Of a stretch of DNA of 64,000 bases, positions 3,923 to 28,277 are shown one piece after another (the first letter of the stretch is position 1; each line of letters begins with the position of its first letter). The stretch comes from Methylophaga sp. (GTDB lineage Bacteria; Pseudomonadota; Gammaproteobacteria; Nitrosococcales; Methylophagaceae). The notes under the pieces are model-generated. The model did no database searches and had not been told where the DNA came from. It worked only from the letters and a program-made list of their open reading frames with translations. Location: assembly GCA_030148085.1 (NCBI GenBank), contig JASBUF010000059.1:1-64000 (forward strand). Direction: 5' to 3'. Made by a program: the position numbers and the translations under genes.

Positions 3923-4200
3923 TGCAGGTGTTGTTTTTTTGCGTTCATGAACTCACCCAGCTTTTCTGCTCGTGGCGGCATCTGCACATGAAAGCCTTGA
4001 GTTTCCAGATTTTTCATCACGGTATTCACCTCTTCACGTGCCAAAGGGCGCTCTGGGCTTAAGTCCAGTTCCATCACAAAAATCGGCTCTTTGCCCATGG
4101 AGTTGTAGAGTTCCTGTGGGATCTCAGAAAAATCATCTTTTTTAGTGATGTACAGGTAGAGCTCTTCTTTCTTTGCGCTTTTGTAAATAAAGGTTTTCAT
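3919..4200 (-). CDS. YcgL domain-containing protein
   Basis: [31 protein letters not shown] resembles the YcgL family. Confidence 0.85.
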
Positions 4201-4210
4201 TTAAGGACAA

Positions 4211-4621
4211 TCAGGAAATAGGTGGGTGATAAATGATTTGTACAACGGTGCCCGCCGGGTCATAGCAGTAAAAACTGCGGGCGCCATCACGGTGAGTTCG
4301 TGGTGCTGTCCGCATTTTAACATTGTGGGCTTGTAGAAATTCAAACCAGTGATCGACTTCATCCATGGTCGGGATAATAAAGCCGATATGGTCGAGTTTT
4401 TGCTGTTCCTGTGGCGCAGGCGTGACCTCCGCACGGTGCAGGGCGAGGTTGTCATTACCTGAGGTCAGGTAAACGTTGTCATCATCCGGACGCCACTCGA
4501 CTTCCATGCCGAGTAATTCGACATAAAATTGTTCACAGGCGGCCAGATCGCCAACAAAAAGCGCAATATGCCGCATACCACCGGTTTTGCCTGGACGTGT
4601 AAGTGTTTGATTGTATTGCAT
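4211..4621 (-). CDS. VOC family (glyoxalase-like) protein
   Basis: GGMRHIALFVGDLAACEQFYVELLGMEVEWR...HIGFIIPTMDEVDHWFEFLQAH...YDPAGTVVQIIY; start set at MQYNQTL. Confidence 0.88.
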   Translation of the reverse strand: MQYNQTLTRPGKTGGMRHIALFVGDLAACEQFYVELLGMEVEWRPDDDNVYLTSGNDNLALHRAEVTPAPQEQQKLDHIGFIIPTMDEVDHWFEFLQAHNVKMRTAPRTHRDGARSFYCYDPAGTVVQIIYHPPIS

Positions 4622-4629
4622 AGTATTTC

Positions 4630-6270
4630 TTATTCGCCAAATACCTGTTGGCAGCATTGTTGCCAGATGTCACTACCAAACTGATGTTCAATCACCAGAG
4701 GTAGGGCTACCGAGCCACAGCTGAGTAATTTGTCGTGGAACGCTTTCAGTTGTTCCGTGCTGGCCGGGTTTACGATGCCACGCAGAGCATTAATCAATGC
4801 CCAGCCAACGGCATAACTCATAGGCACAGTTGGAGACTGGCTATACCAGCCACACTCCGCTGTGGCCTGAGCTTTACTAAAGCCAAGCTTATCCACCATT
4901 TCCTGAGCGGCTTGTTCCAACGTCCAGACACCCGTGTGGATATTCACATCGATTATAATCCGCAACGCCCGCCATAGGCGGTCACGTAACATCACCACTT
5001 TCTGACCACGATACCGTTCAAAGCCTTGTTCCAGCATCATTTGTTCGCAGTACAGCGCCCAGCCTTCATATAGCGTAGCGCACGGGAAAAGACGGCGAAC
5101 CAGTGCTGATCCCTTATTCGATTGGTTGGCCGTCACAAACTGCAAGTGATGACCGGGCCACGCTTCGTGAATACTGGTTTGAGCGATAGCGGCGAAATTA
5201 TGCTCTTTGAGTTCGCTGTCGTGGCTTACCGGTGTGACGTAATAAAACGCACTTTGGCTCAGGTCAGCAATGCTGGGGTCGAGATAAGCTGCAAAAGGGA
5301 TTTGATGACGCAAAAAGGCCGGTGTGTCGACGACATTTAAATGCTGTCTGCTGGGCAGACTCACCAACGCATGTTCTTTTAGAAAGTCTTTTGCTGCTTG
5401 CATTTCCTGCTGATAAGTCGATAGCAGTTGATTCGTGCTTGGGTGATGTTCACGGATTTGTTCAAGTGTCAGACCGGTTTCAGTTTCGGCCTCAGCAAGT
5501 GCCTTGAGTGTGTTTTCAAACAAACGTTCGCCAAACTGTTTCAGTTTTTGCGAACTGATGGGGAGAAAATGTCGATGATGAAGTAAACGCTCAAATTGTT
5601 CACGGCCACAGGCAAAGTCACCCTGAGCCTTGCCATTAAGACGACTTAGAACGTGGTGCAAATCTTCAATCGCTTTGCCTGCATCCTGTAAAGCCGTATC
5701 AATATTTTCATGTTGCGATAAGGCTTTTTGTACACGTGGGTGGGCGGATAACTCGTGACAGAACTGCAGACCGGCTTCGCATTCCTGCGTCGCCATCTGC
5801 AGCCAGACCGGTGGAATAATTTCGGGCCGACTGGTTAAAAAGGTCTTGGCTTCACGGACTCTGCCGGGGATATGCTGAAGGCGCGACAGTAACGCCTGAC
5901 TGAAGCTTTTAAGCGGACGAATAGTCAGCTGGTGCAAGGCATCAATGGGCAGAAAGCGAGTTGGATCGCGATAACGCCAGTCGTGGTCCATAAACTCATG
6001 ATGTTCGAGTACGGCCCAGCCATGCAGCACCTTAAAGTTCAGCAGACGGTCAGCATCGAGTTGGGTGGCATCGACTTCATCCAGCGCTGCCAGACATTTC
6101 TCATTCAGTACCAGTTGAATACCGAGACTGACATCGTCGCAAGGTGTTAGCTCACCAGCATAATCTTCAATGCCTGCATCCAGTGCTGATTCAGGGTTGA
6201 ACCGACACCAGCTGGTTAGGTAGCTGTGCTCAATACGGTCAAAAGTATGACTGTGATCACTCGACATCAA
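4630..6270 (-). CDS. DUF885 family protein (metallopeptidase-like)
   Basis: IHEAWPGHHLQFV (HExxxGHH) and YEGWALYCEQMMLEQGF motifs. Confidence 0.9.
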   Translation of the reverse strand: MMSSDHSHTFDRIEHSYLTSWCRFNPESALDAGIEDYAGELTPCDDVSLGIQLVLNEKCLAALDEVDATQLDADRLLNFKVLHGWAVLEHHEFMDHDWRYRDPTRFLPIDALHQLTIRPLKSFSQALLSRLQHIPGRVREAKTFLTSRPEIIPPVWLQMATQECEAGLQFCHELSAHPRVQKALSQHENIDTALQDAGKAIEDLHHVLSRLNGKAQGDFACGREQFERLLHHRHFLPISSQKLKQFGERLFENTLKALAEAETETGLTLEQIREHHPSTNQLLSTYQQEMQAAKDFLKEHALVSLPSRQHLNVVDTPAFLRHQIPFAAYLDPSIADLSQSAFYYVTPVSHDSELKEHNFAAIAQTSIHEAWPGHHLQFVTANQSNKGSALVRRLFPCATLYEGWALYCEQMMLEQGFERYRGQKVVMLRDRLWRALRIIIDVNIHTGVWTLEQAAQEMVDKLGFSKAQATAECGWYSQSPTVPMSYAVGWALINALRGIVNPASTEQLKAFHDKLLSCGSVALPLVIEHQFGSDIWQQCCQQVFGE

Positions 6271-6691
6271 TAATCTCGTAGTCGTGGGTAATGGTTGCCG
6301 TTTTAGCCAGCATCAGCGTGGCGGAGCAGTATTTTTCGGTCGACATCTTAATGGCGCGTTCGACAAAGCTGGGTTTGACGTCCTTGCCGGTCACTTTGTA
6401 GTGAATATGAATATTGGTATAGACCTTAGGAATTTCTTCGCTGCGTTCACCGTCAATTTCAATCACACAGTCACGCACATCCTGACGGGATTTTTTCAGG
6501 ATTTCGATAACATCATAAGCAGTACAACCACCCATGCCCAGTAACAGTAATTCCATAGGGCGCATACCTGTGCCATGACCACCGGCTTCTTCAGGGCCGT
6601 CCATCACTACAGTGTGACCGGTGCCTGACTCACCCAGGAACATGACATCCTCAACCCATTTCACTCGTGCTTTCATTAAAATGTTTCCCAA
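6257..6691 (-). CDS. OsmC family protein
   Basis: GPEEAGGHGTGMRPMELLLLGMGGCTAYDVIEIL. Confidence 0.9.
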   Translation of the reverse strand: MGNILMKARVKWVEDVMFLGESGTGHTVVMDGPEEAGGHGTGMRPMELLLLGMGGCTAYDVIEILKKSRQDVRDCVIEIDGERSEEIPKVYTNIHIHYKVTGKDVKPSFVERAIKMSTEKYCSATLMLAKTATITHDYEIIDVE

Positions 6692-6794
6692 AGTTGATAA
6701 ATAACTTTAATTTTGCCATATTTGTGAAGTTGAAAACGAATTATAACCGTTTGCAAAGGTATACTCCTTGCCGGTTTACTAGTTGAGATGATGG

Positions 6795-7478
6795 ATGGAA
6801 TATCACAAACATAAAGCATTAGAAGAGGGGCTTGCTGACTTCTTCCACAGCTGTCATAGCAAATTTTATCCTGCAAAAAACATCATTGTCCGGCCCGGTG
6901 ATCCAGCAGATACACTCTTTTACATACGTCAGGGTTCAGTCACTGTCTGCATGGAAAATGAGGAGGGTGAAGAGCTTATTGTTGCCTACCTGAATCAGGG
7001 CGACTTCATTGGTGAAATCGGTTATTTTTCCGAAGTTGGCGACAGAATGGTCACTATTCGCGCTAAAACTGATGTCAAAACCGAAGAAATTTCCTATCAG
7101 CAACTTCGCTCTCAAGCCGAAGGCCAATTGAAAAGTTGTTACCCAACCTTGCTCTATACCTTGGGTGAGCAAATGGCCAGACGGTTACTCTCGACCACAC
7201 GTAAGGCAACAGATCTGGCATTTCTTGATGTGTCCGGTAGGGTAGAGGCCGCTCTGAAAGAGCTGTCAGTTCAGCCTGATGCGATGCGTCATCCGCAAGG
7301 GACGCAAATCAAGGTCACACGTCAGGAAATTAGCCGTATCGTTGGTTGCTCGCGTGAAATGGTAGGCCGAGTTCTTAAAGAATTACAGGAAGTAGGCAAA
7401 GTATGGGCACACGGTAAAACCGTGATCGTCTACGATGAAGCCCATCTCAATAAAAACCCTGTGGTGAAAAAGCTCTAA
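6795..7478 (+). CDS. crp: CRP/Vfr-like cyclic-nucleotide transcriptional regulator
   Basis: [10 protein letters not shown] cNMP-binding domain plus ITRQEI-like/[32 protein letters not shown]; colinear with E. coli Crp. Confidence 0.9.
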
Positions 7479-7492
7479 AAGAAGAGCTTTTT
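7467..7492. terminator. Bidirectional terminator-like hairpin at the crp/trpC convergent overlap
   Basis: AAAAAGCTCT-aaaaga-AGAGCTTTTT, perfect 10-bp arms, A/T tracts on both sides. Confidence 0.8.
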
Positions 7493-8275
7493 TAGTTCCA
7501 AGCCAGGATCATCCGCACGCATAAAGGCTTCGCCAACTAAGAAGCTGTGAACATTGTTATCACGCATCAATTTCACATCATCCTGCGTGTGAATACCGCT
7601 TTCTGTCACCACAATGTGACCTTCTGGGATACGTTGCAGAAGGGATAGCGTGGTATTCAATGACGTATCAAAAGTACGCAGGTTACGGTTATTGATGCCG
7701 ATTAGCGGCAGGTTCATCACCAAAGCACGTTCCAGTTCAGCCTCATCGTGCACTTCCACTAGTACATCCATACCAAGTTGCATGGCCATTTGGCTCAGGT
7801 CTTCTAACTGGTTGTCATCCAGCGCCGAGACAATAAGCAAGATGCAGTCTGCATTGATAGCGCGGGCTTCAAAGACCTGGTAGGGATCGATAATGAAATC
7901 TTTGCGAATAACCGGCAGGTCACAGGCTTTACGAGCCTGCTGCAAATATTCTTCGTGTCCTTGGAAGAAATCCCGGTCAGTTAATACCGACAGGCAGGCT
8001 GCACCATTTTCAGCATAACTGGCAGCGATCTCAGCTGGTTTAAAGTTTTCACGAAGCAGACCTTTACTAGGCGACGCTTTCTTGATTTCAGCAATCACGC
8101 CAGGCTCACCATCAGAAATTTTGCGTGCTATCGCATCAACAAAGCCGCGAGGCTCATCGGCGACTTCAGCCAATTGCTGCATGATGCCGAGAGGAATCTT
8201 TTTACTGCGATCGGCAATTTCTTCTTTTTTGCGGTCAAGAATTTTGACCAGAATATCAGGCGTGTTTTCAGTCAT
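7475..8275 (-). CDS. trpC: Indole-3-glycerol phosphate synthase
   Basis: [50 protein letters not shown]. Confidence 0.97.
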
Positions 8276-9294
8276 AGTGATTTTGCTTGGCTGTTAACGA
8301 TCAATGCGTTTAATTTTTCGGTAGCGGCACCCGAATCAATCACGGAAGCTGCCAGTTCAATACCTTGTTGCAATGAGTCTGCAAGATCGGCGGCATAAAT
8401 AGCTGCACCGGCATTGAGTACCACGATATTGCGGGCAGGGCCTTGCTCGCCGGCAAAGATGGCTTTGATGATGGCAAGACTATCATGGGCGTTTTTGACA
8501 GCGAGCTCGCTGACATTGCTGCGGGTCATGCCAAAGTCTTCGGGCTTGATGGTATAGGTCGAAATCTGGCCATCTTTGAGTTCAGCAACATGGGTGTCTG
8601 CACCGATGCTGATTTCATCTAGGCCGTCTTCGGCATGAACCACCAGTACATGTTTACTACCCAGTGATTGCAGGACTTCGGCCATAGGAGTGACCCATTT
8701 CTGGTCAAACACACCTAAGACTTGGTGTGCAGCTTGTGCGGGATTGGTGAGTGGCCCAAGCAGATTGAAAATAGTACGCACCCCCATTTCACGACGAGGG
8801 CCAATCGCATGCTTCATGGCGCCGTGGTGTTTTTGCGCAAACAGGAAACCAACACCAACATTATCAATGCAATATTTGACTTGTTCTGGCGTCAATTCGA
8901 GGTTTACTCCAGCTGCTTCCAGCACATCGGCACTACCAGAACTGCTGCTGATAGAGCGATTGCCGTGTTTGGCGACTTTAGCGCCAGCCGCGGCGACCAC
9001 AAAGGCGCTCGCTGTGGAGACATTAAAGGTGCTTGCGCCATCACCACCGGTGCCGCAGGTGTCTACCACATGCTCACCGTCGATTTGAACCTGTGTGGCT
9101 AAAGAGCGCATCACTTCTGCAGCAGCGGCGATTTCCGTGGCGGTTTCACCTTTCATACTTAAACCAATCAGAAAACCACCAATCTGGGCTGGTGTCGCGT
9201 TGCCCGTCATGATCTGCTGCATGACTACACGCATTTGTTCAGCGCTTAGATCCTGATGTTGAGTGACCAGCCTCAGTGCTGCTTGAATATCCAT
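8272..9294 (-). CDS. trpD: Anthranilate phosphoribosyltransferase
   Basis: [49 protein letters not shown]. Confidence 0.97.
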
Positions 9295-9303
9295 AATCAG
9301 CCC

Positions 9304-9882
9304 TTAACGTTCAAGAAAGTTCTTTAACAGCTCGTGACCTTGTTCAGTCAGAATCGATTCGGGGTGGAACTGAACGCCTTCGATCGGCAGGGTTTTGTGC
9401 TCTACACCCATGATTTCATCGATTTCGCCGTCTTCGGTTTCTGTCCAGGCAGTAATGTTAAAGCAGTCTGGCAGGTTCTCTTTATTTATAACGAGAGAGT
9501 GATAGCGGGTGGCTTCCAGTGGATTTTTAAGACCGCGGAAGACACTGCTGTTATTGTGGTACACCATGGAGGTTTTGCCGTGCATGATTTCTTTAGCGTG
9601 GACGATTTCACCACCAAATACCTGGCCAATCGATTGATGACCCAGGCAGACGCCAAGTAACGGTTTCTTGCCAGCAAAGTGCTCAATAACAGTCATCGAA
9701 ATACCGGCTTCATTCGGGGTACATGGACCGGGAGAAAGCACAATCCTATCCGGGTTCAGCGCTTCGATTTCTTCAATGGTAATTTTGTCGTTGCGGTGAA
9801 CAACAACCTCTTCACCCAGTTCACCGAAGTATTGCACTAGGTTGTAGGTGAAAGAGTCGTAATTGTCGATCATTAACAGCAT
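9304..9882 (-). CDS. trpG: Anthranilate synthase component II (glutamine amidotransferase)
   Basis: [47 protein letters not shown]; internal start preferred. Confidence 0.96.
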
Positions 9883-9895
9883 AACGTTTCCCAGA

Positions 9896-11392
9896 TCAGC
9901 GCTCAGCGTGTGGGTCGGCTTCCAGACCCGCCTCAGCCATGGCAACAGCACGGAAAATAGCTCTTGCCTTATTCATTGTTTCTTTCCATTCCAGTTCTGG
10001 TACAGAGTCATAGACAATGCCTGCACCAGCCTGAATGTGCAGCGTATTATCCTTGATGACGGCGGTACGGATCGCAATCGCGGTATCCATATTACCTGAC
10101 CAGGACAGATAGCCTACCGCACCGGCATAAACACCGCGTTTTACTGGCTCAAATTCGTCAATGATTTCCATTGCCCGAACTTTCGGTGCACCACTTACGG
10201 TACCGGCCGGGAAGGTCGCACGTAAGGCATCAATCGCAGACATATTGTCGAGTACTTTACCCGTGACATTGGAGACGATGTGCATCACGTGTGAGTAGCG
10301 TTCGATGACCATCTTATCGGTCAGCGCGACAGTACCGGTCTGACTGACACGGCCAATATCGTTACGGCCTAAATCAATCAGCATCAGGTGTTCAGCCAAC
10401 TCTTTAGGATCAGCCAGCAGCTCTTTTTCGAAAGCAATATCTTCTTCTTCAGTCTTACCGCGACGGCGGGTACCGGCAATCGGTCTGACCGTGACTTCCT
10501 GATCTTCCATACGCACCAGAATTTCAGGTGAGGAACCGACCACGTCAAAATTGCCCAGGTTCAGGTAATACATATACGGCGACGGGTTCAGTGTTCGCAG
10601 GGCTCGGTACATATCCACCGGCTGTGCAGCAAACGGAATCGACAGACGTTGAGATAAAACCACCTGCATGATGTCGCCATCAGTAATGTATTGCTTAGCT
10701 TTTTCTACCGCATCAATAAAGCCGTCATGGGTAAAGCCGGAAATAAAGTCTTCTTCATTAACCTGACGACGTTCAGCTTTCTGCTGGAACTTCGGTGTGG
10801 TGTTACGCAGAGTTTCGACCAGTTCATCCAGACGTGCCTGACCCCGCTCGTAAGCATTTTCTTGCGTCGGATCTGCATGAACAATCAGGTAGAGACGTCC
10901 GCTTAAGTTATCGAACACGACCAGTTCATCTGAGACCATTAGCATGATGTCAGGGCAGTTCAGTGGATCCGGTGCTTTGCTTTCACCTAAACGAGTTTCG
11001 ACATAACGTACGGTGTCATAGCCGAAATAACCGACCAGACCGCCGTTAAATTTCGGCAGGCCATCAATTTCCGCGACGTTGTAACGCTGCTGGAAGCTTT
11101 CGACCCAACTCAGCGGATCTTCGCTGCGGTCGGTTTCGATGATGTTGCCCTGATGTTCGACAGTAATGTCATTGCCGAAGATGCGGACAATGGTTTCACA
11201 GGGAAGACCGATGATGGAGTATCGACCCCATTTCTCACCACCGTGAACGGACTCAAATAAATAAGAGTAGGGCGCATCGGCCAGCTTGAGGTAGGTACTG
11301 AGCGGCGTATCCAGATCAGCCAGTACTTCCCGTGCCAGCGGAATGCGATTAAAGCCGTCAGCGGCCAGTTGTTCGAATTGTGCCTGTTTCAT
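9896..11392 (-). CDS. trpE: Anthranilate synthase component I
   Basis: [48 protein letters not shown]. Confidence 0.97.
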
Positions 11393-11401
11393 CGCTTCTT
11401 T

Positions 11402-11698
11402 CTAAAATAAGCTTTCCAGCTCTGCAAAACTATCAATCACGGCGTCCGTTCCGGCTCGATATATATCGGTACCGTGGTTGTAGCCGTCGCTCATGCATAC
11501 TATGTTGAATTCGGCGGCGCGTGAAGTCTTAATATCACTGATCAAGCTACCGACCCTAGTTTCTGACCTTGGCGATTGTGTAGGACACTCTGCTAGGTTG
11601 TTCCAGCATTTGGTCAGCAACCAGACCAAACCCGGCATGCTGTGAACCAGCATGCCGGCCAGATCGCTAGGCACGATCTAGGATTTGGTTGGTCTCAT
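11402..11698 (-). pseudogene. gph: Decayed phosphoglycolate phosphatase (gph) remnant: N- and C-termini retained, centre deleted
   Basis: Minus-strand MRPTKS*IVPSDLAGMLVHSMPGLVW matches the Gph N-terminus (DLDGTLVDSVPDLVW-like), joined to VGSLISDIKTSRAAEFNIVCMSDGYNHGTDI (Gph C-terminus); starts 10 nt after the rpe stop. Confidence 0.85.
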
Positions 11699-11707
11699 CG
11701 ACGTGAA

Positions 11708-12400
11708 TTAAACGTTGGCTTTAGCCAGCTCTTCACGCAGTGCAGCGATGACGGTTTCGTACTTGTTAGGGTCGCTGTCGTTAGCGGCACCGAATACGGC
11801 AGAACCTGCTACGAAAGTACGTGCACCGGCTTCAGCGATTTCGCGGATGTTATTCACGTTCACGCCGCCATCGATTTCCAGATCGATGTCATAACCGCTT
11901 TCGTCGATCATTTTGCGAGCTTGGCGCAGTTTATCCAGTGTGTGTGGAATAAATTTCTGACCACCGAAACCTGGGTTTACTGACATCAGTAGGATGCGGT
12001 CAACTTTATCCAATACGTGCTCTGCCAAAGACAGTGGTGTAGCAGGGTTGAAAACCAGACCGGTTTTACAGCCTTCAGCTTTAACCAATTGCAGACTGCG
12101 ATCGATGTGTTCAGACGCTTCCGGGTGGAAAGTGATGAACGTCGCGCCAGCTTTAGCAAAATCAGGGATGATGCGGTCAACCGGTTTAACCATCAGATGC
12201 ACGTCAATTTCATGAGTCACACCATGTTTGCGCAGGGCATCACAGACTAGTGGACCGATAGTCAGGTTAGGCACATAGTGGTTGTCCATCACATCAAAGT
12301 GAACAATGTCGGCACCTGAGGCCAGCACGTTGTCGACTTCTTCACCCAGACGAGCAAAGTCAGCAGACAGGATAGATGGAGCAATTTTAAATTCAGCCAT
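11708..12400 (-). CDS. rpe: Ribulose-phosphate 3-epimerase
   Basis: [56 protein letters not shown]. Confidence 0.98.
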
Positions 12401-12529
12401 GTTTTGTCTCTCTTAAAACTTTGGTTTAGAAATTCTGCAGAAACCCGATACTTTACCGTATCAGGTGTCTTTTTTCAGCTTTTGAAAAGATTCCGCGATG
12501 ATTATACTGAGTAGTGAAATTGCAATGAG

Positions 12530-13393
12530 GTGGAGTGCGGTTTGCAAATCGTTCGTAAAACCGGTCTTTTAGGAATTCTAATCGCTCTGGCATGGCCTGT
12601 ATGGTCAACTGAAGATGACGAGAAGGAGAGCCCAGCAGCGCCTTTGGTTCACAGTGAACCCGGCCATGTTGTGGGCTATATCTCGTTGCCTGTCGGTGAG
12701 CAAGAACTGCCTGCTACCTTAATATCAGAACAACTGGGTGAACCGCTCGGCAAAGTTCTTATCCTGCATGATAGTGGTGGCGGTATTGCTGGAACTGGTC
12801 TCGTTGATACCCTGCGTTTAACCCTGCCGGAGTCTGGCTGGACGACCATGACCGTGGCGCTGGAGTATCCCTATTCGCCACAGTTATTCGTGGCGGAATC
12901 TGCTGATGACAGTGAGGCTGCCGATGCTTCTGACCTTACAGAGGCTGGTGAACAGATCGCTGAAGCAGAGACTGACACAGAGCAAACCCAGCTGGCAGAC
13001 AATAATGCACGCATCAGTGCGGCGCTGGCTTATTTAAATGCTCAACAACCCGGTCCTACAGTCATTGTTGCCTTTGGTGAAGCAGTACCGCTCGCAATAA
13101 GTGCTGCGAGTCAACAAGGTGATGACAAAGCACAAATTTGGATCGCTGCCGATATGACATTCAGCGAGTTGCCCGAGCTTGGGCCATTGCTGGATATTAT
13201 GCCTCAGGATGTGGGTAAGAAAAACACGGATGCTCTTAGCCGCGCCGTACTTATGCGTCAGGCTAACAATCAAAGCTATTCGCAACGTCGATTGGTCGGC
13301 GCCGGTCATGATTTTCAGGGCTTTGAAAATCAAGTTTTGACTACGGTGCGTGCTTGGCTGCAAAAACAGTTTAAATCTGAGGGGCAAGGCTGA
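12530..13393 (+). CDS. DUF3530-like protein (alpha/beta-hydrolase-like, secreted)
   Basis: Signal-like N-terminus; KVLILHDSGGGIAG...SGWTTMTVALEYP pattern. Confidence 0.7.
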   Translation: MECGLQIVRKTGLLGILIALAWPVWSTEDDEKESPAAPLVHSEPGHVVGYISLPVGEQELPATLISEQLGEPLGKVLILHDSGGGIAGTGLVDTLRLTLPESGWTTMTVALEYPYSPQLFVAESADDSEAADASDLTEAGEQIAEAETDTEQTQLADNNARISAALAYLNAQQPGPTVIVAFGEAVPLAISAASQQGDDKAQIWIAADMTFSELPELGPLLDIMPQDVGKKNTDALSRAVLMRQANNQSYSQRRLVGAGHDFQGFENQVLTTVRAWLQKQFKSEGQG

Positions 13394-14199
13394 TGCGCTT
13401 GTATGGGGATGGCAGCCTGGTGCATCAGGCTCAGTCGGATGAAGGCATTATCGAGGTTGTCGATACGGGAGATAGTCGCTCGTTGCATTTCGGCACGTAC
13501 CCACGTCAGAGTTCCATGCGTCTCAGTGATCCTGCGTTTTTGGATTTAAGTTATACCCAAGCGATGATGGGCTGTTTGTTACTCAACCCGAATCCACGTC
13601 GCGTGTTAGTGATTGGATTGGGCGGCGGATCGTTGGTGAAGTTTCTGTTACGTCATTTCCCTGACTGTCAGGTTGATGTGGTCGAATATCGCCGCGATGT
13701 TATTGACGTGGCACAACGGTATTTTGGTGTGCCGGCTAACGAACCCAGGCTGAACATTACCCAAGGTGATGGCTACTTGCATGTGAATCACTGCTTTTAC
13801 GAAACGGATCTCAGTTACGACCTGTTACTAGTCGATGCTTATGACCATAACGGCATGGCAGCCAGTGTTGGGGTACAGGCTTTTTTTGATGCCTGTGCGG
13901 GCATCTTGAGCCCTGATGGGGTGATGAGCATCAATCTCTGGGGCAGTGACCGTAACGGTTTTCATCGGACCATGGAGCGTATCAATAACAGCTTTGCAGA
14001 TCGCTCAATGATCTTGCCAGTGGAGAATAAAGGTAATGTGATTGCCTTAGCAACGCAGTTTGAAGTCGGCCACCGGGAATTGAAAGCGTTGAGAACGCAA
14101 GTGGATGAGTGGGAGATGCGTTACCGCATCAATTTGCCTAAAGCCTTACAGAACCTGATCCGGCAAAACCGTAATTTCATCAGTCGCCTGTTTGCCTGA
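13393..14199 (+). CDS. Spermidine synthase-like methyltransferase-fold protein
   Basis: RRVLVIGLGGGSLVKFLLRHFPDCQVDVVEYRRDVIDVAQRYF. Confidence 0.85.
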   Translation: MRLYGDGSLVHQAQSDEGIIEVVDTGDSRSLHFGTYPRQSSMRLSDPAFLDLSYTQAMMGCLLLNPNPRRVLVIGLGGGSLVKFLLRHFPDCQVDVVEYRRDVIDVAQRYFGVPANEPRLNITQGDGYLHVNHCFYETDLSYDLLLVDAYDHNGMAASVGVQAFFDACAGILSPDGVMSINLWGSDRNGFHRTMERINNSFADRSMILPVENKGNVIALATQFEVGHRELKALRTQVDEWEMRYRINLPKALQNLIRQNRNFISRLFA

Positions 14200-15386
14200 T
14201 GCTTAACAGCCTGTTTCTTAATCTCGGACTGCTTATGGCGACAGGGCTGCTATTCAGTCTGATAGCCGCACACTTCAATCTGCCACGTATTGCGCTCTAT
14301 GCGTTAGCTGGCCTCGTCTGGTCCCAAGATTTGCTGGGCGGTGTATTTGGTTTGCAGTTAGGAGCGTGGTCAGAGTCGCTTACAGCCGCTGCGTTAGCAT
14401 TGATTGCCTATCTTATTGGTGGTTCAGTCACAGCTAAGCAATTAAAAAAGCTGGGCAGTACGATTCTTTTTTGCACGTTTGGTGAAGTTCTTGGTGCGGC
14501 TATCTTGGTGTTTGTGGCGGTGGCTATTTTTCTGAACGGGCAGGCGGATGCCATGTTATTGGCATCTGCACTCGCGGTACTCGCTGCAAGCACGGCACCT
14601 GCAGCAACCGTTGCGGTGATTCATGAGTACCGCAGCCATGGGCCTTTGACTACATCACTACTGGGGGTAGTGGCACTGGATGATGCGATCGGCATAATGC
14701 TGTTTTCCCTCTTTTTGGTCTGGTCAACCGGCATAGCGATGACCGAGGTGTTTGCGAGTGCGGGGCTGGAAATTGGTGGAGCCATACTGCTTGGTGAAGT
14801 AATGGGCTGGTGTCTGGCCTTTTTTGGGCACCGGGTCCGAAATCCACATTTCTTTTTACCGATGGTGCTCAGCGCGATATTGCTCAGTCAGGGACTGGCC
14901 AGTATCTGGCATTGTTCGCCTCTGTTAACAGCTATGTCGCTAGGTTTTTTTGCACGGGCTACCTTCAAGTCAGGCGGTGAGCGATTATTGGCCCCGGTAG
15001 AATATCTGGAAGAACTGGTGTTTTTAGTGTTTTTTACACTTGCAGGGGCACATTTTGATCTGGACATCTTGCTATCTGGCTTCGAGTTGGTTCTGCTCTA
15101 TGTCGTTGCCAGAGTCATAGGCAAAATGCTCGGAACCAATGTGGCTGCCAGGCTGGTGTCTGCCCCCAAAACAGTCCAGAAATATATTGGATTTGGTGTG
15201 ATTCCACAGGCGGGTATCGCCATTGGTCTGGCATTGTCACTACTGAGTCACCCGGTATTTGCGGAGAGTGGTCTGTTAATCGTCAATGTGATTTTGGCCA
15301 GCACCCTGATTTATGAAGTGCTGGGTCCGTTTGCTACTCGTTATGCCTTGCAGCAGGCCGGTGAAATTAGAGAGTCTCGACAATGA
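14199..15386 (+). CDS. Cation:proton antiporter (CPA family)
   Basis: Multi-TM protein; ALAVLAASTAPAATVAVIHEYRSHGPLTTSLLGVVALDDAIGI. Confidence 0.88.
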   Translation: MLNSLFLNLGLLMATGLLFSLIAAHFNLPRIALYALAGLVWSQDLLGGVFGLQLGAWSESLTAAALALIAYLIGGSVTAKQLKKLGSTILFCTFGEVLGAAILVFVAVAIFLNGQADAMLLASALAVLAASTAPAATVAVIHEYRSHGPLTTSLLGVVALDDAIGIMLFSLFLVWSTGIAMTEVFASAGLEIGGAILLGEVMGWCLAFFGHRVRNPHFFLPMVLSAILLSQGLASIWHCSPLLTAMSLGFFARATFKSGGERLLAPVEYLEELVFLVFFTLAGAHFDLDILLSGFELVLLYVVARVIGKMLGTNVAARLVSAPKTVQKYIGFGVIPQAGIAIGLALSLLSHPVFAESGLLIVNVILASTLIYEVLGPFATRYALQQAGEIRESRQ

Positions 15387-15817
15387 CTGAGCGACTGATT
15401 GAGCAATCTGTAGCGGAATGGTTAGCGCAGCATCCATCCCAAATGGTTGTGGTGACGCAGGATACGCCTTTAGTGACTGTCGTTAAATTGATGCTGGAGC
15501 ATGATTCGCGTGATGCCTATGTGGTAGAGGGTAATCGTGTTCGTGGACATCTGGGGTTCAACAAGCTGCTTAATTATCTGTTTACACAGGAGCGACCAGT
15601 ACACTCGCATCGTCAATTATTCAGCAGAATTGCCGATATTTCTGTAGTAGACATCATGGATCCACACTATGCCTATTGCAGGCCCAATGAGCAGATCAAT
15701 GCTGTATTGCATAGACAGTTGCAGCATGATGTGACTGATTTGATAGTATTAGCGACGGATGACTCACCAGTGGGTGTTGTTAAGTTAACGGAAGTGGTAC
15801 GGGAAAGCCTCCAATGA
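15383..15817 (+). CDS. CBS domain-containing protein
   Basis: Two CBS-like repeats (VVTQDTPLVTVVKLMLEHDSRDAYVVEGNRVRG...DPHYAYCRPNEQINAVLHRQLQHDVTDLIVL). Confidence 0.75.
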   Translation: MTERLIEQSVAEWLAQHPSQMVVVTQDTPLVTVVKLMLEHDSRDAYVVEGNRVRGHLGFNKLLNYLFTQERPVHSHRQLFSRIADISVVDIMDPHYAYCRPNEQINAVLHRQLQHDVTDLIVLATDDSPVGVVKLTEVVRESLQ

Positions 15818-16377
15818 ACAAAATGTCAGCCTTTATTCTGACCTCATTAACACTGCTTTTCTGGCAAATGCCAGCGCAGGCAATTGAAGAATATGAGTTG
15901 CTGATAAAACGCTCGGAAAAAAAACTTATCGTACAAAAAGACGGTAAGCCGATTCGCAGCTTCCATGTAGCACTTGGAAGTGGAGGTAGTAAGCCTAAAT
16001 TGGAGTCGGGCGATCGCCGGACGCCGATGGGCAAATATCACATCACCCAGGTGCGTGACAGTAACCGTTTCCACCTGTTTATGCAGCTTGATTACCCCAG
16101 TGTTCGAGATGCCATCAATGCCCTGAAAGAAGAGCGCATCAGTAAGGCTGAATATCGCCGCATCCTTGATGCCCATATTTTCGGTAAGTTGCCACCGCAG
16201 AATACGTCTCTTGGTGGTGCCATAGGTATTCATGGCATTGGTGAGGAAACCAAGGATAAAGTTGAGATTCACCAGTTAGCTAACTGGACGCAGGGTTGTA
16301 TTGCACTGCGCAATAATGAAATTGAGCAACTCACCTATTACGTCAGCAAAGGCACTTCAGTTACGATTACAGACTGA
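15814..16377 (+). CDS. L,D-transpeptidase family protein (YkuD)
   Basis: GDRRTPMGKYHI ... IGIHGIG ... NWTQGCIALRNNEIE active-site motif. Confidence 0.92.
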   Translation: MNKMSAFILTSLTLLFWQMPAQAIEEYELLIKRSEKKLIVQKDGKPIRSFHVALGSGGSKPKLESGDRRTPMGKYHITQVRDSNRFHLFMQLDYPSVRDAINALKEERISKAEYRRILDAHIFGKLPPQNTSLGGAIGIHGIGEETKDKVEIHQLANWTQGCIALRNNEIEQLTYYVSKGTSVTITD

Positions 16378-16456
16378 CAGGGCTTAAAAACCTGCTACAG
16401 GTCACTGAATTTGGTAGAATATTCCCACTTTTCTGCCTGACCCTCCTGAGGAACTG

Positions 16457-18631
16457 ATGCAAGCCGCCCCCGATCTCTTTTCCTATCGTAAATTCTGGGC
16501 ACACCGCTTTGGTGTTGCGCCTGAATTACCTATGTCCCGAGAGGAAATGGACAAGCTCGGTTGGGATTCTTGCGACATCATCATTGTCACCGGTGATGCT
16601 TATGTCGATCACCCCAGTTTCGGTATGGCGCTAATTGGGCGCTTACTCGAATCTCACGGCTTTCGTGTCGGCATTATTTCCCAACCTGATTGGACCAGTG
16701 CAGAAGACTTTCAAAAGCTTGGTAAACCCAATCTGTTTTGGGGGGTGACCGGCGGCAATATGGATTCGATGGTCAACCGTTACACATCAGATCGTAAAAT
16801 CCGTAGTAATGATGCCTACACCGCCGGTGGCGAGGGGGGCAAACGCCCCGATCACAGCGTTGTTGTCTATAGCCAGCGTTGCCGCGAAGCATTCAAAGGT
16901 GTGCCAGTCGTCATTGGTGGTATTGAAGCCAGTCTGCGCCGCATTGCCCACTATGACTATTGGTCAGAAAAAGTCCGTCGCAGCGTGCTCATGGACAGTA
17001 AGGCTGATCTACTGGTTTACGGCAATGGTGAACGCCAGGTTGTAGAAATCGCTCATCGTCTTGCCGCTGGGGAGTCCGTCAAAGAACTCACAGACATTCG
17101 TGGTACGGCCTATGCCACCAAACACCAACGCCGTGATGGGTGGTGGGAGAAAGATTCAACCTCGGTAGATACACCGGGCAAATTAAATCCACCGATCGAC
17201 CCGTATCAAATGCAGACTGAAGCCAGCTGCGTCGAAGAAAAAGCACGCACAGAAGAAGAAAAGGCTGCACAGCCTGCTGGCAACGTCATCAAAATTCATC
17301 GAGTGTCACCACGTAATGCCGGTAAAACGGTGATTCGACTGCCGGCTTTCAATCAGGTCAAAGATGATCCGGTTACCTATGCTCATACTTCACGTATTCT
17401 TCATCTTGAAACTAACCCGGGTAACGCACTGGCACTGGTACAACAGCATGGTGATCAGGATGTCTGGCTCAATCCACCGCCGATTCCGTTAACCACGAAA
17501 GAGATGGATGCGGTATTTGACCTGCCGTACAGCCGGGTTCCACACACGAAATACGGTAAGATGAATATTCCTGCCTACGAGATGATTCGTTTCTCGGTCA
17601 ATATCATGCGTGGCTGTTTTGGTGGGTGTACTTTCTGCTCGATCACAGAACATGAAGGCCGGATTATTCAGAGCCGCAGTGAAGACTCAATTATTCGGGA
17701 AGTGGAAGCGATTCGCGACACCACCCCCGGCTTTACCGGCGTTATTTCGGATTTGGGCGGGCCAACAGCAAATATGTATCGCCTTGCTTGTAATGATCCG
17801 GAAATTGAAGCCAGTTGCCGTCGTTTGTCCTGTGTGTTTCCGGGCGTGTGTAAGAATCTGAATACTGACCACACACCACTTATTAATTTATACAAACGTG
17901 CCCGTCAGCTGCCGGGTATCAAGAAAATTCTGATTGCCTCAGGCCTGCGTTATGACCTTGCCGTATTGTCACCGGAGTACGTCAAAGAACTGGTGACCCA
18001 CCACGTCGGTGGTTACCTGAAAATTGCACCCGAACATACCGAGGAAGGCCCGCTGTCGCAGATGATGAAACCGGGCATCGGTACGTATGACAAGTTCAAG
18101 CAGATGTTCGACAAGTACTCGAAAGAGGCGGGCAAAGAACAGTATCTGATTCCTTACTTTATCGCTGCACATCCGGGTACCACCGATGAAGATATGATGA
18201 ATCTGGCTATCTGGCTTAAGCGTAATGGTTTCCGCGCCGATCAGGTTCAGGCGTATCTGCCGTCACCGATGTCGGCCGCTGCCGCGATGTATCACTCTGG
18301 GAAAAACACCTTGAGTAAAGTGCGTCGTAAGGGGGGCGATATTTTTGTACCTAAGGGGCTCAAAGTGCGTCGTCTGCATAAAGCCTTTTTGCGTTATCAC
18401 GACCCAGAAAACTGGCCGATGCTGCGTGAAGCGCTGAAGAGCATGGGCCGTGCTGATTTGATCGGTAATGGCAAAAAACACCTAATACCGAGTTTCCAAC
18501 CTGCGGGTACCGGTGGCCAGGGAGAAGGGCAACGAGTCAGCCGTAAAGCCAATAAGCCAAGTGGAAAAGGGCAGACCTTCCGCACCCAACATACCCGTCC
18601 GGGCAAGGTCAAGTCGCGCCGTCGTAGCTAA
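16457..18631 (+). CDS. YgiQ family radical SAM protein
   Basis: [46 protein letters not shown] radical SAM CxxxCxxC. Confidence 0.96.
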
Positions 18632-25123: not shown

Positions 25124-25152
25124 AAAAAGCCCGCTAAAGAAGCGGGCTTTTT
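25124..25152. terminator. Rho-independent terminator-like hairpin
   Basis: AAAAAGCCCGCT-aaaga-AGCGGGCTTTTT. Confidence 0.85.
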
Positions 25153-25157
25153 ATGTA

Positions 25158-25172
25158 ATGGCGGAGGGACAG
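25158..25172 (+). repeat. Candidate attL: displaced copy of the tRNA-Ser 3' end
   Basis: ATGGCGGAGGGACAG identical to 28187-28201. Confidence 0.8.
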
Positions 25173-25312
25173 TCCGCCATACTGATGTTTTTCATTGTTT
25201 TCTAAAATTCGCAGCCATTCTCATGAGGCCTTGGTATAGCTAAGTTTGCGCGGCGTTTCTGTTTGCGAAAATATTTTTTTGTTCGTCATCATTCTCGTAA
25301 ATCCGCTCTCAA

Positions 25313-25337
25313 GTGGTACACGTAATGGTACACGTAA
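25313..25337 (+). repeat. Left tandem repeat (candidate recombinase arm-type sites)
   Basis: GTGGTACACGTAATGGTACACGTAA, two adjacent identical 12-mers TGGTACACGTAA. Confidence 0.6.
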
Positions 25338-25599
25338 TCAGATATTAGAAATAAATCTGCCAATGAGCATCGTAGGTGGGCTAATACATGCTTTAGAGCT
25401 ATTGATGGGGAGCGTGAATTTCATTTTTGCCAAACGGGCAAAGACACATCATTAACTGAGTGTCTGAAAATTTGTGAAATATACTTCTCAGGAAAAAGAG
25501 ATGTACGTAACCAACCAGCTGATTGAATTTCTTCAAACTTGATCAGCCATACCTCTGATTGTTAATTTAGGCCAAACACTCATCATGGAAGTGAGCCTA

Positions 25600-28019
25600 A
25601 TGTCCTTTAAACGAATCAGTATTAATAACTTCGGCAGTTTCTCAAATTTTATTTGGAATCAATCAGTTCTAAACAAAAAAAATGAGACTGAAGAATTTGC
25701 CCGAATGAACGTGCTCTATGGGCGAAATTACTCTGGAAAGACTACTCTCTCTAGAATATTTAGATCACTAGAAACTGGAGTGATCTCTGAGAAATTTGAA
25801 CATCATGATTTCTTTCTATCTGCGGACTCAGGTCAGATAACTCACCAAGGAATCCCATCCCAGAACTATGAAGTCAGAGTTTACAACACTGATTTTGTTG
25901 ATGAAAACCTCAGCTTCTTGAAACATGAACAAGGCAATATTTCTGCATTTGCTGTCATTGGTAAAGAAAATAAAAAGCTAGAGCAACAAATCCAGAATAA
26001 GCTATTGGAAATTGGCAGTAATGATGAGTCTGACTCACTGACGGGAAAAATTTTTAGCGAGAGAAAAGCTAAAACTGAGGCCATACTAAATTACCAAAGA
26101 GCTGATCGGAGATTAAATGATTTGCTCACAAGGAAAGCAACGAATCCTGATATAGGTATCAAGCACAACGCCACATATAAAGACCCTAATTACAACACTC
26201 CTAAGCTAGTTAGAGATATTGAATCAATATCAGCCATGTCACATCCGATATTGACGCAAGAAGAGATCCAAGAAAAAAAATCATATCTTCAACAGACTTC
26301 ACTGCCTGATATAAACAAACCTCCGCTTCCAACTCTGATGATGGAGTCGTTAATAGAGCAAAGCATTGATTTACTCAGCCGTAAGATAAGGCCAACTGAG
26401 GCAATTCAAGAATTGCTCGACGATGCTCTGTTACAAAGTTGGGTTAAGTCAGGTATCGCGTTACACCAACCGGATAGAAAGTCATGTGGATTTTGTGGCA
26501 ATCCTATACCAAACAACTTATGGGATAAATTGAGTAATCATTTCAGTGAAGAGTCTGAAAAGCTCGAACAGGAAATTAATACACTAATAGGACAGATAAA
26601 AACTGAGGCGCAGAAAGTTGAGAACATTGAGATTCCTCAACAACAAAAATTTTACCCATCATTTTACAAAGATGCTGAGCACTTAAAAATCAACTTGCTG
26701 AACAAAAGACGTTTTACATATCACAATTAGAAAAAATCAAAAACGACCTAGAGAACAGACTCAAAGCTATTTTCAACACGCTAGAAATCTCGAAAATAGA
26801 AGACAATTCAGAGGCTTTAAAAGCAATTATTGAACAGTCCTATCCACTCATTGATGAAAACAATGAAGACACTAAGAGTCTCTCGCAGAAACAGTCTGAA
26901 ATAAGGACAGAGCTGAGACTCAATGAAGTCAGAGAATACTTGTTAAATATCGACTATTTCGAAGAGCTTAAAAAAGTAGAAATTCTGGAATCTAAAACAA
27001 AAAAATTTGATACAAAAATTGATGAATTATCAAAGAGTATTGAAAATTTAAATGCTGATATTGAAATACTCAGAACTAAGATAAGCGATGAGAGACAAGG
27101 TGCTGAACTGGTGAATAAGTACCTAGCTCATTATTTTGGTCATGATAGTCTCAAGCTAGAGGCATTCAAATCAGATGAAGATCAAAAGTTTAAATTCAAG
27201 ATAACTAGAAATGGCCAACCTGCCTATAACATGAGTGAGGGGGAGTGCAGTCTGGTCTCATTTTGCTACTTTATAGCTAAACTCCAAGACACAGATACAA
27301 AAGGCAAAACGCCGGTAATCTACATAGACGACCCAATTTCCAGTTTAGATAGTAACCACATATTCTTCATATTCAGTCTGATTGAGAGCGAGATCGCTGC
27401 TCCATTGCTAAATAGTGATGGGGAACCTTTACTGGACAATGCGGGCAAGAAAACCTATTCCTACGAACAGTTGTTTATTTCTACACACAATCTCGAATTT
27501 CTTAAGTTACTTCAAAAGCTATCTAGGCCAAAAAATAGTTATAGAAGTTTTTTGGTGGTTAAGGATAGTGATGGTAGTCAGATTCGATTGATGCCGTCTT
27601 ACCTTAGTAACTACATCACCGAATTTAATTACTTGTTTGAGCAAATCTACATCTGTGTTGATAACAACAATATCAACGATAATTTTCATGCTTTTTACAG
27701 CTTTGGTAATAACCTCAGAAAATTTCTTGAGGCTTTCCTTTTTTATAAATACCCATTTTCTGAATCTTCTCAACAAGACTACAACACCAGAGTAAGGATG
27801 TTTTTTAACACCGATGAAACTGAGTCACCGCTTGTTCAGAGAATTACTAATGAGTTTTCTCATCTAGGTTCTTACGTTGATAGAGGCGAAAGACCGGTTG
27901 ATAGCGCAGAAATTTCGACTCTTGCTCGATTTGTTATGGAAAAAATCAAAGCTAGTGACCCAGAACAATTCAAATGTCTACTGAAAAGTATTGATAAGAA
28001 TGACCCTATTCCAGCATAG
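25600..28019 (+). pseudogene. RloC/PrrC-like AAA_13 ATPase, candidate anticodon nuclease, interrupted by one frameshift
   Basis: ORF 25585-26730 has Walker A GRNYSGKT and CGFCG; ORF 26940-28019 has ABC signature NMSEGE, Walker B VIYIDDPISSLDSNH, STHNLEF, NNLRKFLEAF and NEFSH. The intervening frame (EQKTFYISQLEKIKNDLENRLKAIFNTLEISK...LRLNEVREY) is open and joins them. Confidence 0.8.
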
Positions 28020-28100
28020 AAATCATAAAGACCTTTGGCGTGCTATCTCATTGGATTAGGTATGGCAGAAGACTCAATAAAAGCCCTTATGCGCATCACA

Positions 28101-28122
28101 GTGGTACACGTACTGGTACACG
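28101..28122 (+). repeat. Right tandem repeat (candidate recombinase arm-type sites)
   Basis: GTGGTACACGTACTGGTACACG, 21/22 identical to 25313-25334, same orientation. Confidence 0.6.
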
Positions 28123-28146
28123 CTACAGGATTTTTAGTGGGGTAGA

Positions 28147-28182
28147 AATAAAAAAGCCCCAAGTATTAGATACTTAGGGCTT
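28147..28182 (-). terminator. Terminator-like hairpin just downstream of tRNA-Ser (minus strand)
   Basis: AAGCCCCAAGTA-ttaga-TACTTAGGGCTT stem with a T-run on the minus strand. Confidence 0.75.
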
Positions 28183-28187
28183 AGATA

Positions 28188-28277
28188 TGGCGGAGGGACA
28201 GGGATTTGAACCCTGGAAGGTCGTTAAACCTTGCCGGTTTTCAAGACCGGTGCTTTCAGCCGCTCAGCCATCCCTCC
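28188..28277 (-). tRNA. tRNA-Ser (anticodon TGA)
   Basis: Minus strand GGAGGGATGGCTGAGCGGCTGAAAGCACCGGTCTTGAAAACCGGCAAGG...CCAGGGTTCAAATCCCTGTCCCTCCGCCA; acceptor stem GGAGGGA/TCCCTCC, long variable arm, encoded CCA. Confidence 0.97.

What the first reader, a model, noticed from the sequence alone, without database searches (positions are those of the whole stretch)
25158..28201. Minimal ~3 kb tRNA-Ser-integrated element without a visible integrase
ATGGCGGAGGGACAG occurs at 25158-25172 and again as the tRNA-Ser(UGA) 3' end plus one flanking base (28187-28201). This is the classic attL/attR layout of tyrosine-recombinase integration that regenerates the tRNA. The ~3.0 kb between is visibly AT-richer than its surroundings and carries one substantial gene (RloC-like). 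No recombinase ORF is present, so it may be a satellite-like defence cassette mobilised in trans, or a decayed island.
Basis: partly seen in the sequence, partly recalled or inferred. Interest (0 to 1): 0.75.

Follow-up and report, generated by a model that had tools for sequence, protein, structure and literature searches.

The report
Integrase-less tRNA-Ser island carrying RloC
A 3-kb piece of foreign DNA sits in a serine-tRNA gene with all the landing sites of a phage-type integrase at both ends but without the integrase itself, carrying one (apparently broken) tRNA-cutting defence gene; it is a clear and tidy example of a known kind of non-autonomous island.

Summary
ATGGCGGAGGGACAG occurs exactly twice in the window: at 25158-25172, and at 28187-28201, where it is the 3' end of tRNA-Ser(UGA). 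The DNA between is 36.9% GC against 49.0% outside, and contains no recombinase.

New here: both ends carry a complete tyrosine-integrase attachment apparatus. The left core is a perfect inverted repeat (ATGGCGGA-7 bp-TCCGCCAT). Paired 12-bp-period repeats (TGGTACACGTAA) lie 133 bp inside the left core and 65 bp inside the right one. They occur nowhere else in the genome. The same layout, with an integrase directly after the left repeats, is found in tRNA-Ser elements of many bacteria and phages. In the same genus it is found in a 12-kb island (G013) and a ~40-kb prophage (G021) in this very site; the prophage's arms are TGGTACAAAAAG. G003 and G002 have the site without the element.

The cargo is one RloC/PrrC-like anticodon nuclease gene with all RloC motifs, but a frameshift near 26,680-26,712 splits it.

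Verdict: an integrase-deleted, att-complete islet (CIME-like), a new member of a known kind. Whether it still moves in trans or is a remnant is open.

The parts
25124..25152 (-). Chromosomal terminator of tRNA-Ser, displaced to the left end of the element
   Evidence: 12-bp perfect hairpin plus T tract on the tRNA strand. In G021 the native terminator is likewise displaced to the left end, and it equals the terminator of empty-site relatives.
25158..25180 (+). Left core site (attL): ATGGCGGA-GGGACAG-TCCGCCAT; the first 15 bp are the tRNA 3'-end repeat
   Evidence: Sequence; 8-bp perfect inverted repeat with 7-bp spacer. The same core, GGCGGAGRGWCAGTCCGCC, occurs in 52 GTDB loci, 20 of them with an IntS/P4-like integrase directly inside.
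25314..25337 (+). Left pair of arm-type-like repeats, TGGTACACGTAA x2 (12-bp period)
   Evidence: Only 4 copies of TGGTACACG in the 64-kb window, all in the two ends; the pair pattern is absent elsewhere in the genome; 133 bp from the core inverted-repeat end.
25338..25584 (+). Position where the integrase gene starts in related elements; no integrase or recognisable remnant here
   Evidence: Pfam, PHROGs and plasmid tblastn negative. In related elements the integrase starts about 30-50 bp after the arms.
25585..26730 (+). 5' part of the RloC-like gene (381 aa ORF): Walker A GRNYSGKT 25720-25743, zinc hook CGFC 26485-26496
   Evidence: Pfam AAA_13 3e-59; PADLOC PDC-S06 1e-114
26940..28019 (+). 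3' part of the RloC-like gene (359 aa ORF; the frame is open from about 26715): ABC signature MSEGE, Walker B/D-loop, ACNase triad R-X3-E-X43-H
   Evidence: Pfam AAA_13 1e-68; PADLOC PDC-S06 7e-142; tblastn shows a frame change near 26680-26712
28102..28122 (+). Right pair of arm-type-like repeats, TGGTACACGTAC TGGTACACG
   Evidence: 65 bp from the right core. G021 prophage arms GTGGTACAAAAAACGGTACAAA lie at the matching position.
28154..28182 (-). Terminator carried by the element, placed next to the tRNA after integration
   Evidence: Hairpin plus T tract on the tRNA strand; the G021 prophage carries one at the same place
28187..28201 (+). Right core (attR), 3' end of tRNA-Ser plus one base
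28188..28277 (-). tRNA-Ser(UGA), the integration target, intact

Best explanation
This is a site-specifically integrated element of about 3.03 kb in the 3' end of tRNA-Ser(UGA). It kept the full DNA side of an IntS/P4-like tyrosine-integrase system: inverted-repeat core, paired 12-bp-period arm sites at both ends, and a replacement tRNA terminator. It has lost (or never had) the integrase gene, which in its relatives starts directly after the left arm pair. That place is followed by an RloC-type anticodon nuclease gene as sole cargo. Inferred mechanism: an integrase with G021-like arm specificity, supplied by a related phage or island, would bind the TGGTACAC pairs and recombine the two ATGGCGGAGGGACAG cores. 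That would excise a circle of about 3.03 kb and restore tRNA plus native terminator; integration runs the other way. At present no cognate integrase is seen in this genome, so the element is probably immobile here (CIME-like). The cargo would be an abortive-type tRNA-cleaving defence, but the frameshift means it is probably inactive unless the base is an assembly error. Shown: ends, absence of the integrase, empty and otherwise-occupied sites, gene family, frameshift. Inferred: binding, excision, defence activity.
For: Exact 15-bp repeat ending at the tRNA 3' end. Perfect core inverted repeat and the arm pairs, unique to this element in the genome; 0 of 2000 mononucleotide shuffles of the element give a far-apart pair of 12-bp-period repeats. 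Of 20 loci with this core and a nearby G013-type integrase, most carry a 12-bp-period pair 98-125 bp from the core just before the integrase, and period 12 is far above periods 8-16. 27 of 40 related viral integrases have such a pair at 8/9 or better in the 130 bp upstream. In the same genus, G013 has a 12-kb element with integrase in the same site, and G021 has a ~40-kb prophage there with arms TGGTACAAAAAG x2 left and TGGTACAAAAAACGGTACAAA right, and its integrase right after the left arms. G003 and G002 lack the element while keeping the left-flank genes and the tRNA. The element's left end is absent from the other 56 genomes of the family searched. No tyrosine recombinase on this contig; none of the three IntS/P4-like integrases elsewhere in the MAG has TGGTACAC arms or sits beside a tRNA-Ser.
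Against: Arm sites are inferred from position and repetition only, and the window's left arms lie 8-35 bp further from the core than in the 20 comparison loci. Both flanks are one MAG contig and no reads were available, so a strain-mixture join cannot be excluded. The MAG is ~90% complete, so a helper could be in the missing part. The right (element-borne) terminator resembles the native terminator of G002, which would also fit homologous recombination near the tRNA, although the prophage in G021 shows the same arrangement.
Confidence: 0.83

Rival explanations
1. Satellite-like or hitcher cassette: the element is adapted to live without an integrase and is regularly excised and mobilised in trans by tRNA-Ser(UGA) prophages of the genus such as the one in G021.
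For: Four arm-like repeats, nearly identical at both ends, and an intact core although no integrase is present; compact layout of ends plus one cargo gene; a resident prophage family in the same genus with near-matching arms and the same core.
Against: No second copy with the same ends found: none among 57 family genomes, none for the stricter arm pattern in GTDB or IMG/VR. No packaging or regulatory gene. Cargo frameshifted. Helper arms differ in the second half of the repeat.
Confidence: 0.2
2. Dead remnant: an integrase-bearing island lost its integrase recently and is now decaying; intact ends only reflect recency.
For: Frameshift in the only cargo gene. A comparable natural case, L256 (Tabrizicola): same core and arm pair, an integrase cut down to a short N-terminal stretch and running into a helicase-like reading frame; no second core found in that 8-kb locus.
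Against: No integrase remnant at all is left here, yet core and arms are intact, which is cleaner than ordinary decay; the frameshift could be an assembly error.
Confidence: 0.55
3. Not an integrated element: chance repeat plus a horizontally acquired AT-rich gene inserted by homologous recombination beside a tRNA.
For: Short repeat (15 bp); tRNA flanks are common recombination points.
Against: The repeat ends exactly at the tRNA 3' end; the core is a perfect inverted repeat; arm pairs occur at both ends with the geometry of known integrase elements; the same site holds a prophage and an island in sister species.
Confidence: 0.03
4. Assembly artefact: a misjoined contig end of a larger island whose integrase-bearing part was lost in binning.
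For: MAG in 95 contigs, 90% complete; other contigs hold tRNA-Ser(GGA) att ends.
Against: The contig is continuous across both junctions, the ends are in the expected order and spacing, and there is no contig end within 25 kb.
Confidence: 0.06

Closest known systems
CIME (cis-mobilizable element), as defined for ICE/IME derivatives (PMC5704250)
   Same: Flanked by attL and attR, has no integration or transfer genes, sits at a tRNA site used by complete relatives
   Different: No tandem complete element next to it, so accretion is not seen; its relatives at the site are a prophage and an island, not demonstrated ICEs; only one gene
ssrA genomic islands without integration module in Dehalococcoides (PMC3146451)
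   Same: Islands with direct-repeat borders at an RNA gene, some lacking the integration module that others at the same site carry
   Different: Those use a serine recombinase (DsiB) and lie in tandem; here a tyrosine-integrase architecture with arm pairs and a single islet
tRNA-Ser(UGA) prophage in G021 and 12-kb island in G013 (same genus, this work)
   Same: Same core, same tRNA, paired 12-bp-period arms at both ends; the G021 arms are the nearest sequence match and it also carries its own terminator next to the tRNA
   Different: Both encode an integrase directly after the left arms; 40 and 12 kb instead of 3 kb
RloC anticodon nuclease (PMC2610378)
   Same: AAA/ABC motifs, CX2C zinc hook, R-X3-E-X(36-52)-H triad with Ser before His
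   Different: Window gene has a frameshift; activity untested
MITEs / CALINs / hitcher genetic elements (PMC11389934)
   Same: Non-autonomous DNA that keeps the recombination sites and depends on a helper enzyme
   Different: Those belong to transposons and integrons; here the sites are of a tRNA-targeting phage-type integrase

Membership tests
tRNA-integrated genomic island (tyrosine integrase) | tRNA 3'-end direct repeat bounding the island with the tRNA kept intact | tested here: met
tRNA-integrated genomic island (tyrosine integrase) | Relatives without the island lack the second repeat | tested here: met
   G003, G002
tRNA-integrated genomic island (tyrosine integrase) | Own integrase gene | tested here: not met
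CIME | attL and attR retained, integration and transfer genes absent | tested here: met
   Sequence; the only gene-sized ORFs are the two RloC parts
CIME | Derived by decay of an ICE or IME | tested here: inconclusive
   Nearest relatives at the site are a prophage and an island; no trace of the ancestor's genes
CIME | Mobilisable by accretion with an element integrating in its att site | not testable with these tools
   Needs an excision or transfer assay
Phage satellite (PICI, P4, PLE, PICMI) | Own integrase and/or regulatory, replication or packaging-interference genes | tested here: not met
   Only the RloC-like gene is present
RloC | ABC-ATPase motifs (Walker A, signature, Walker B/D-loop) | tested here: met
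RloC | CX2C zinc hook in a coiled-coil insert | tested here: met
   CGFC at 26485-26496; coiled coil not computed
RloC | R-X3-E-X36-52-H triad | tested here: met
   R-X3-E-X43-H, Ser before His (definition PMC2610378)
RloC | One continuous reading frame | tested here: not met
   Frame change near 26680-26712 against four intact homologues
RloC | tRNA anticodon cleavage, phage defence | not testable with these tools
   -

The most novel reading that the evidence does not exclude
Phages and islands that target tRNA-Ser in this genus have integrase-free satellites made only of core plus arm sites and one defence gene, which ride on the phage integrase. As a further step, the defence gene has taken the position of the integrase gene behind attL, so its expression could be controlled by whichever integrase binds the arms; autoregulation of this kind is known for IntS of KplE1 (PMC2951348).
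Probability: 0.15. Interest if true: 0.65.

Novelty: new member of a known kind. Interest (0 to 1): 0.4.

Why it matters
It is one of the smallest cases in which all DNA sites of a tRNA-targeting integrase can be read off while the enzyme is missing, with an integrase-bearing prophage of nearly the same arm specificity in a sister species. That makes the old question of how integrase-less islands keep moving testable with one plasmid and one integrase. It also gives a simple rule (12-bp-period arm pairs about 100-135 bp inside a TGGCGGA-n7-TCCGCC core) for finding other ownerless islands at tRNA-Ser genes.

Tried and rejected
TGGTACAC pairs as a general integrase mark: the loose pattern is common in viral contigs and mostly not next to integrases (9 of 120 by tblastn), so the claim was narrowed to the pair plus core geometry. 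Stricter arm pattern in GTDB and IMG/VR: no hit. Integrase remnant at 25338-25540: an open frame of 58 codons there gives no Pfam, PHROG or plasmid match. RloC in viral contigs or phages as evidence of phage transfer: none close. RloC as recurrent cargo: only 3 of 350 genomes of the class have a close relative, own genome included. Helper in the own genome: the C80 integrase sits beside tRNA-Cys with arms GGTGGTAA; C13 and C40 have 11-bp-period repeats (TGTCTACATAG; AGTTACACTGG); none fits. DUF6538 integrase with TGGTACACAAAC arms in G027 (rnpB site): first thought to be the helper type, but its spacing to the site differs, and the G021 type fits better. G005 seemed to have a 17-kb insertion at the site, but it is an ordinary gene cluster without att repeats.

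Full report
Observation. The repeat ATGGCGGAGGGACAG is present at 25158-25172 and 28187-28201 and nowhere else in the window within two mismatches. The right copy is the 3' end of tRNA-Ser(UGA), 28188-28277 on the minus strand, plus one flanking base. The enclosed DNA is 36.9% GC against 49.0% outside, lower than any other 3-kb stretch of the window. The window is contig C49 of a 2.46-Mb MAG in 95 contigs, about 90% complete.

Ends. At the left the repeat extends into a perfect inverted repeat, ATGGCGGA-GGGACAG-TCCGCCAT (25158-25180), the form of a tyrosine-integrase core with a 7-bp overlap. A pair of direct repeats with 12-bp period, TGGTACACGTAA TGGTACACGTAA, starts 133 bp inside this core, and a second pair, TGGTACACGTAC TGGTACACG, ends 65 bp before the right core. 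The four TGGTACACG copies are the only ones in 64 kb (expected 0.41), and the pair pattern is absent elsewhere in the genome. The mononucleotide shuffle test gave 0 of 2000. Both ends also have a tRNA terminator hairpin (25124-25152 and 28154-28182).

Other users of the same core. The left-core pattern was found in 52 GTDB loci and 7 viral loci; some are plainly chance. Twenty have an integrase of the G013 type starting 100-450 bp inside. Most of these carry a 12-bp-period repeat pair 98-125 bp from the core, just before the integrase; periods 8-11 and 13-16 show no such signal. Of 40 related viral integrases with upstream DNA, 27 have such a pair at 8/9 or better, often with a TGGCGGA-n7-TCCGCC core. 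The window therefore has the DNA half of this system, with RloC in place of the integrase.

Same site in the genus. The tRNA-Ser/YccA-like locus was recovered in every same-genus genome searched (23, own included). G003 and G002 lack the island but have the left-flank genes (tsaB, cmoA, cmoB and others), a terminator and the tRNA. G013 has a 12-kb element with integrase and arm pairs in the same place. G021 has a ~40-kb prophage there: left core 21631, left arms GTGGTACAAAAAGTGGTACAAA, integrase right after them, right arms GTGGTACAAAAAACGGTACAAA, then a terminator and the tRNA core at 62021. Its displaced native terminator equals that of empty-site relatives, which shows that these elements bring a replacement terminator. 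The G021 arms are the nearest known match to the window's arms.

Cargo. One gene of the AAA_13/RloC/PrrC group (PADLOC PDC-S06), 40-50% identical to intact plasmid proteins. It has Walker A, signature, Walker B, a CX2C zinc hook and the R-X3-E-X43-(S)H triad, matching the published RloC definition (PMC2610378). A single frame change near 26,680-26,712 splits it, with both halves otherwise open. Real mutation and assembly error cannot be told apart without reads.

No integrase. No recombinase domain on this contig, no remnant in the left end, no RDF-like gene. Of the seven PF00589 matches in the genome, the three IntS/P4-like integrases examined (C80, C13, C40) do not have TGGTACAC arms and none sits beside a tRNA-Ser. 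The helper, if there is one, is outside the assembled genome.

Interpretation. The parsimonious reading is an integrase-deleted element that kept both att regions, i.e. a CIME-like islet (definition in PMC5704250; a precedent of RNA-gene islands without integration module in PMC3146451). L256 (Tabrizicola) looks like a similar route caught earlier: same core and arms, integrase cut to a short N-terminal stretch and running into a helicase-like frame, though its far end was not found in the 8 kb held. Whether the islet still moves in trans is not decided by sequence. The intact sites speak for the possibility; the frameshift, the lack of a helper and the lack of other copies speak for a remnant. 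The two confidences given for 'satellite' and 'remnant' are sub-cases of the best explanation.

Limits. No reads, no binding data; arm sites are inferred from position and repetition. The RloC function is by homology. Genus names are not given by the tools.

Noticed in passing
L002/L023 (G000:C62, L002 1151-1560): tRNA-Ser(GGA) followed by ~250 bp with two pairs of TTGTTCCCTCA repeats (12-bp period) and a tRNA-Ser(UGA)-type core plus terminator: looks like a cargo-less att remnant.
   Followed up: partly
L106 (G000:C78, 660-860): Triple GTTCCCTCAATT repeat and core GGCGGA-CTCCTTC-TCCGCCAT (tRNA-Ser(GGA) type) at a contig end with no integrase visible in the ~660 bp before it: a second integrase-less end in the same genome.
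   Followed up: partly
L016 (G027:C87): ~7.5-kb element in the 3' end of rnpB (duplicated rnpB end, ~130 bp) with TGGTACACAAAC pairs at both ends; the pair overlaps the start codon of a DUF6538 integrase (MVHKLVH...).
   Followed up: partly
L053 (G013:C2, oriented 6524-18507): 12-kb integrase-bearing island in the same tRNA-Ser(UGA) site; cargo not examined.
   Followed up: no
L256 (Tabrizicola, 3425-5500 oriented): tRNA-Ser core and arm pair followed by an integrase truncated to a short N-terminal stretch and a ~640-aa helicase-like reading frame: a natural integrase deletion.
   Followed up: partly
L002 2130-2215: Partial tRNA-Leu 3' portion without its 5' half downstream of the tRNA-Ser(GGA) locus, probably a scar of another island.
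   Followed up: no
L019 (G000:C80, 68-1509): tRNA-Cys with an IntS-like integrase whose start overlaps GGTGGTAA repeats (12-bp period), followed by satellite/phage-like genes.
   Followed up: no
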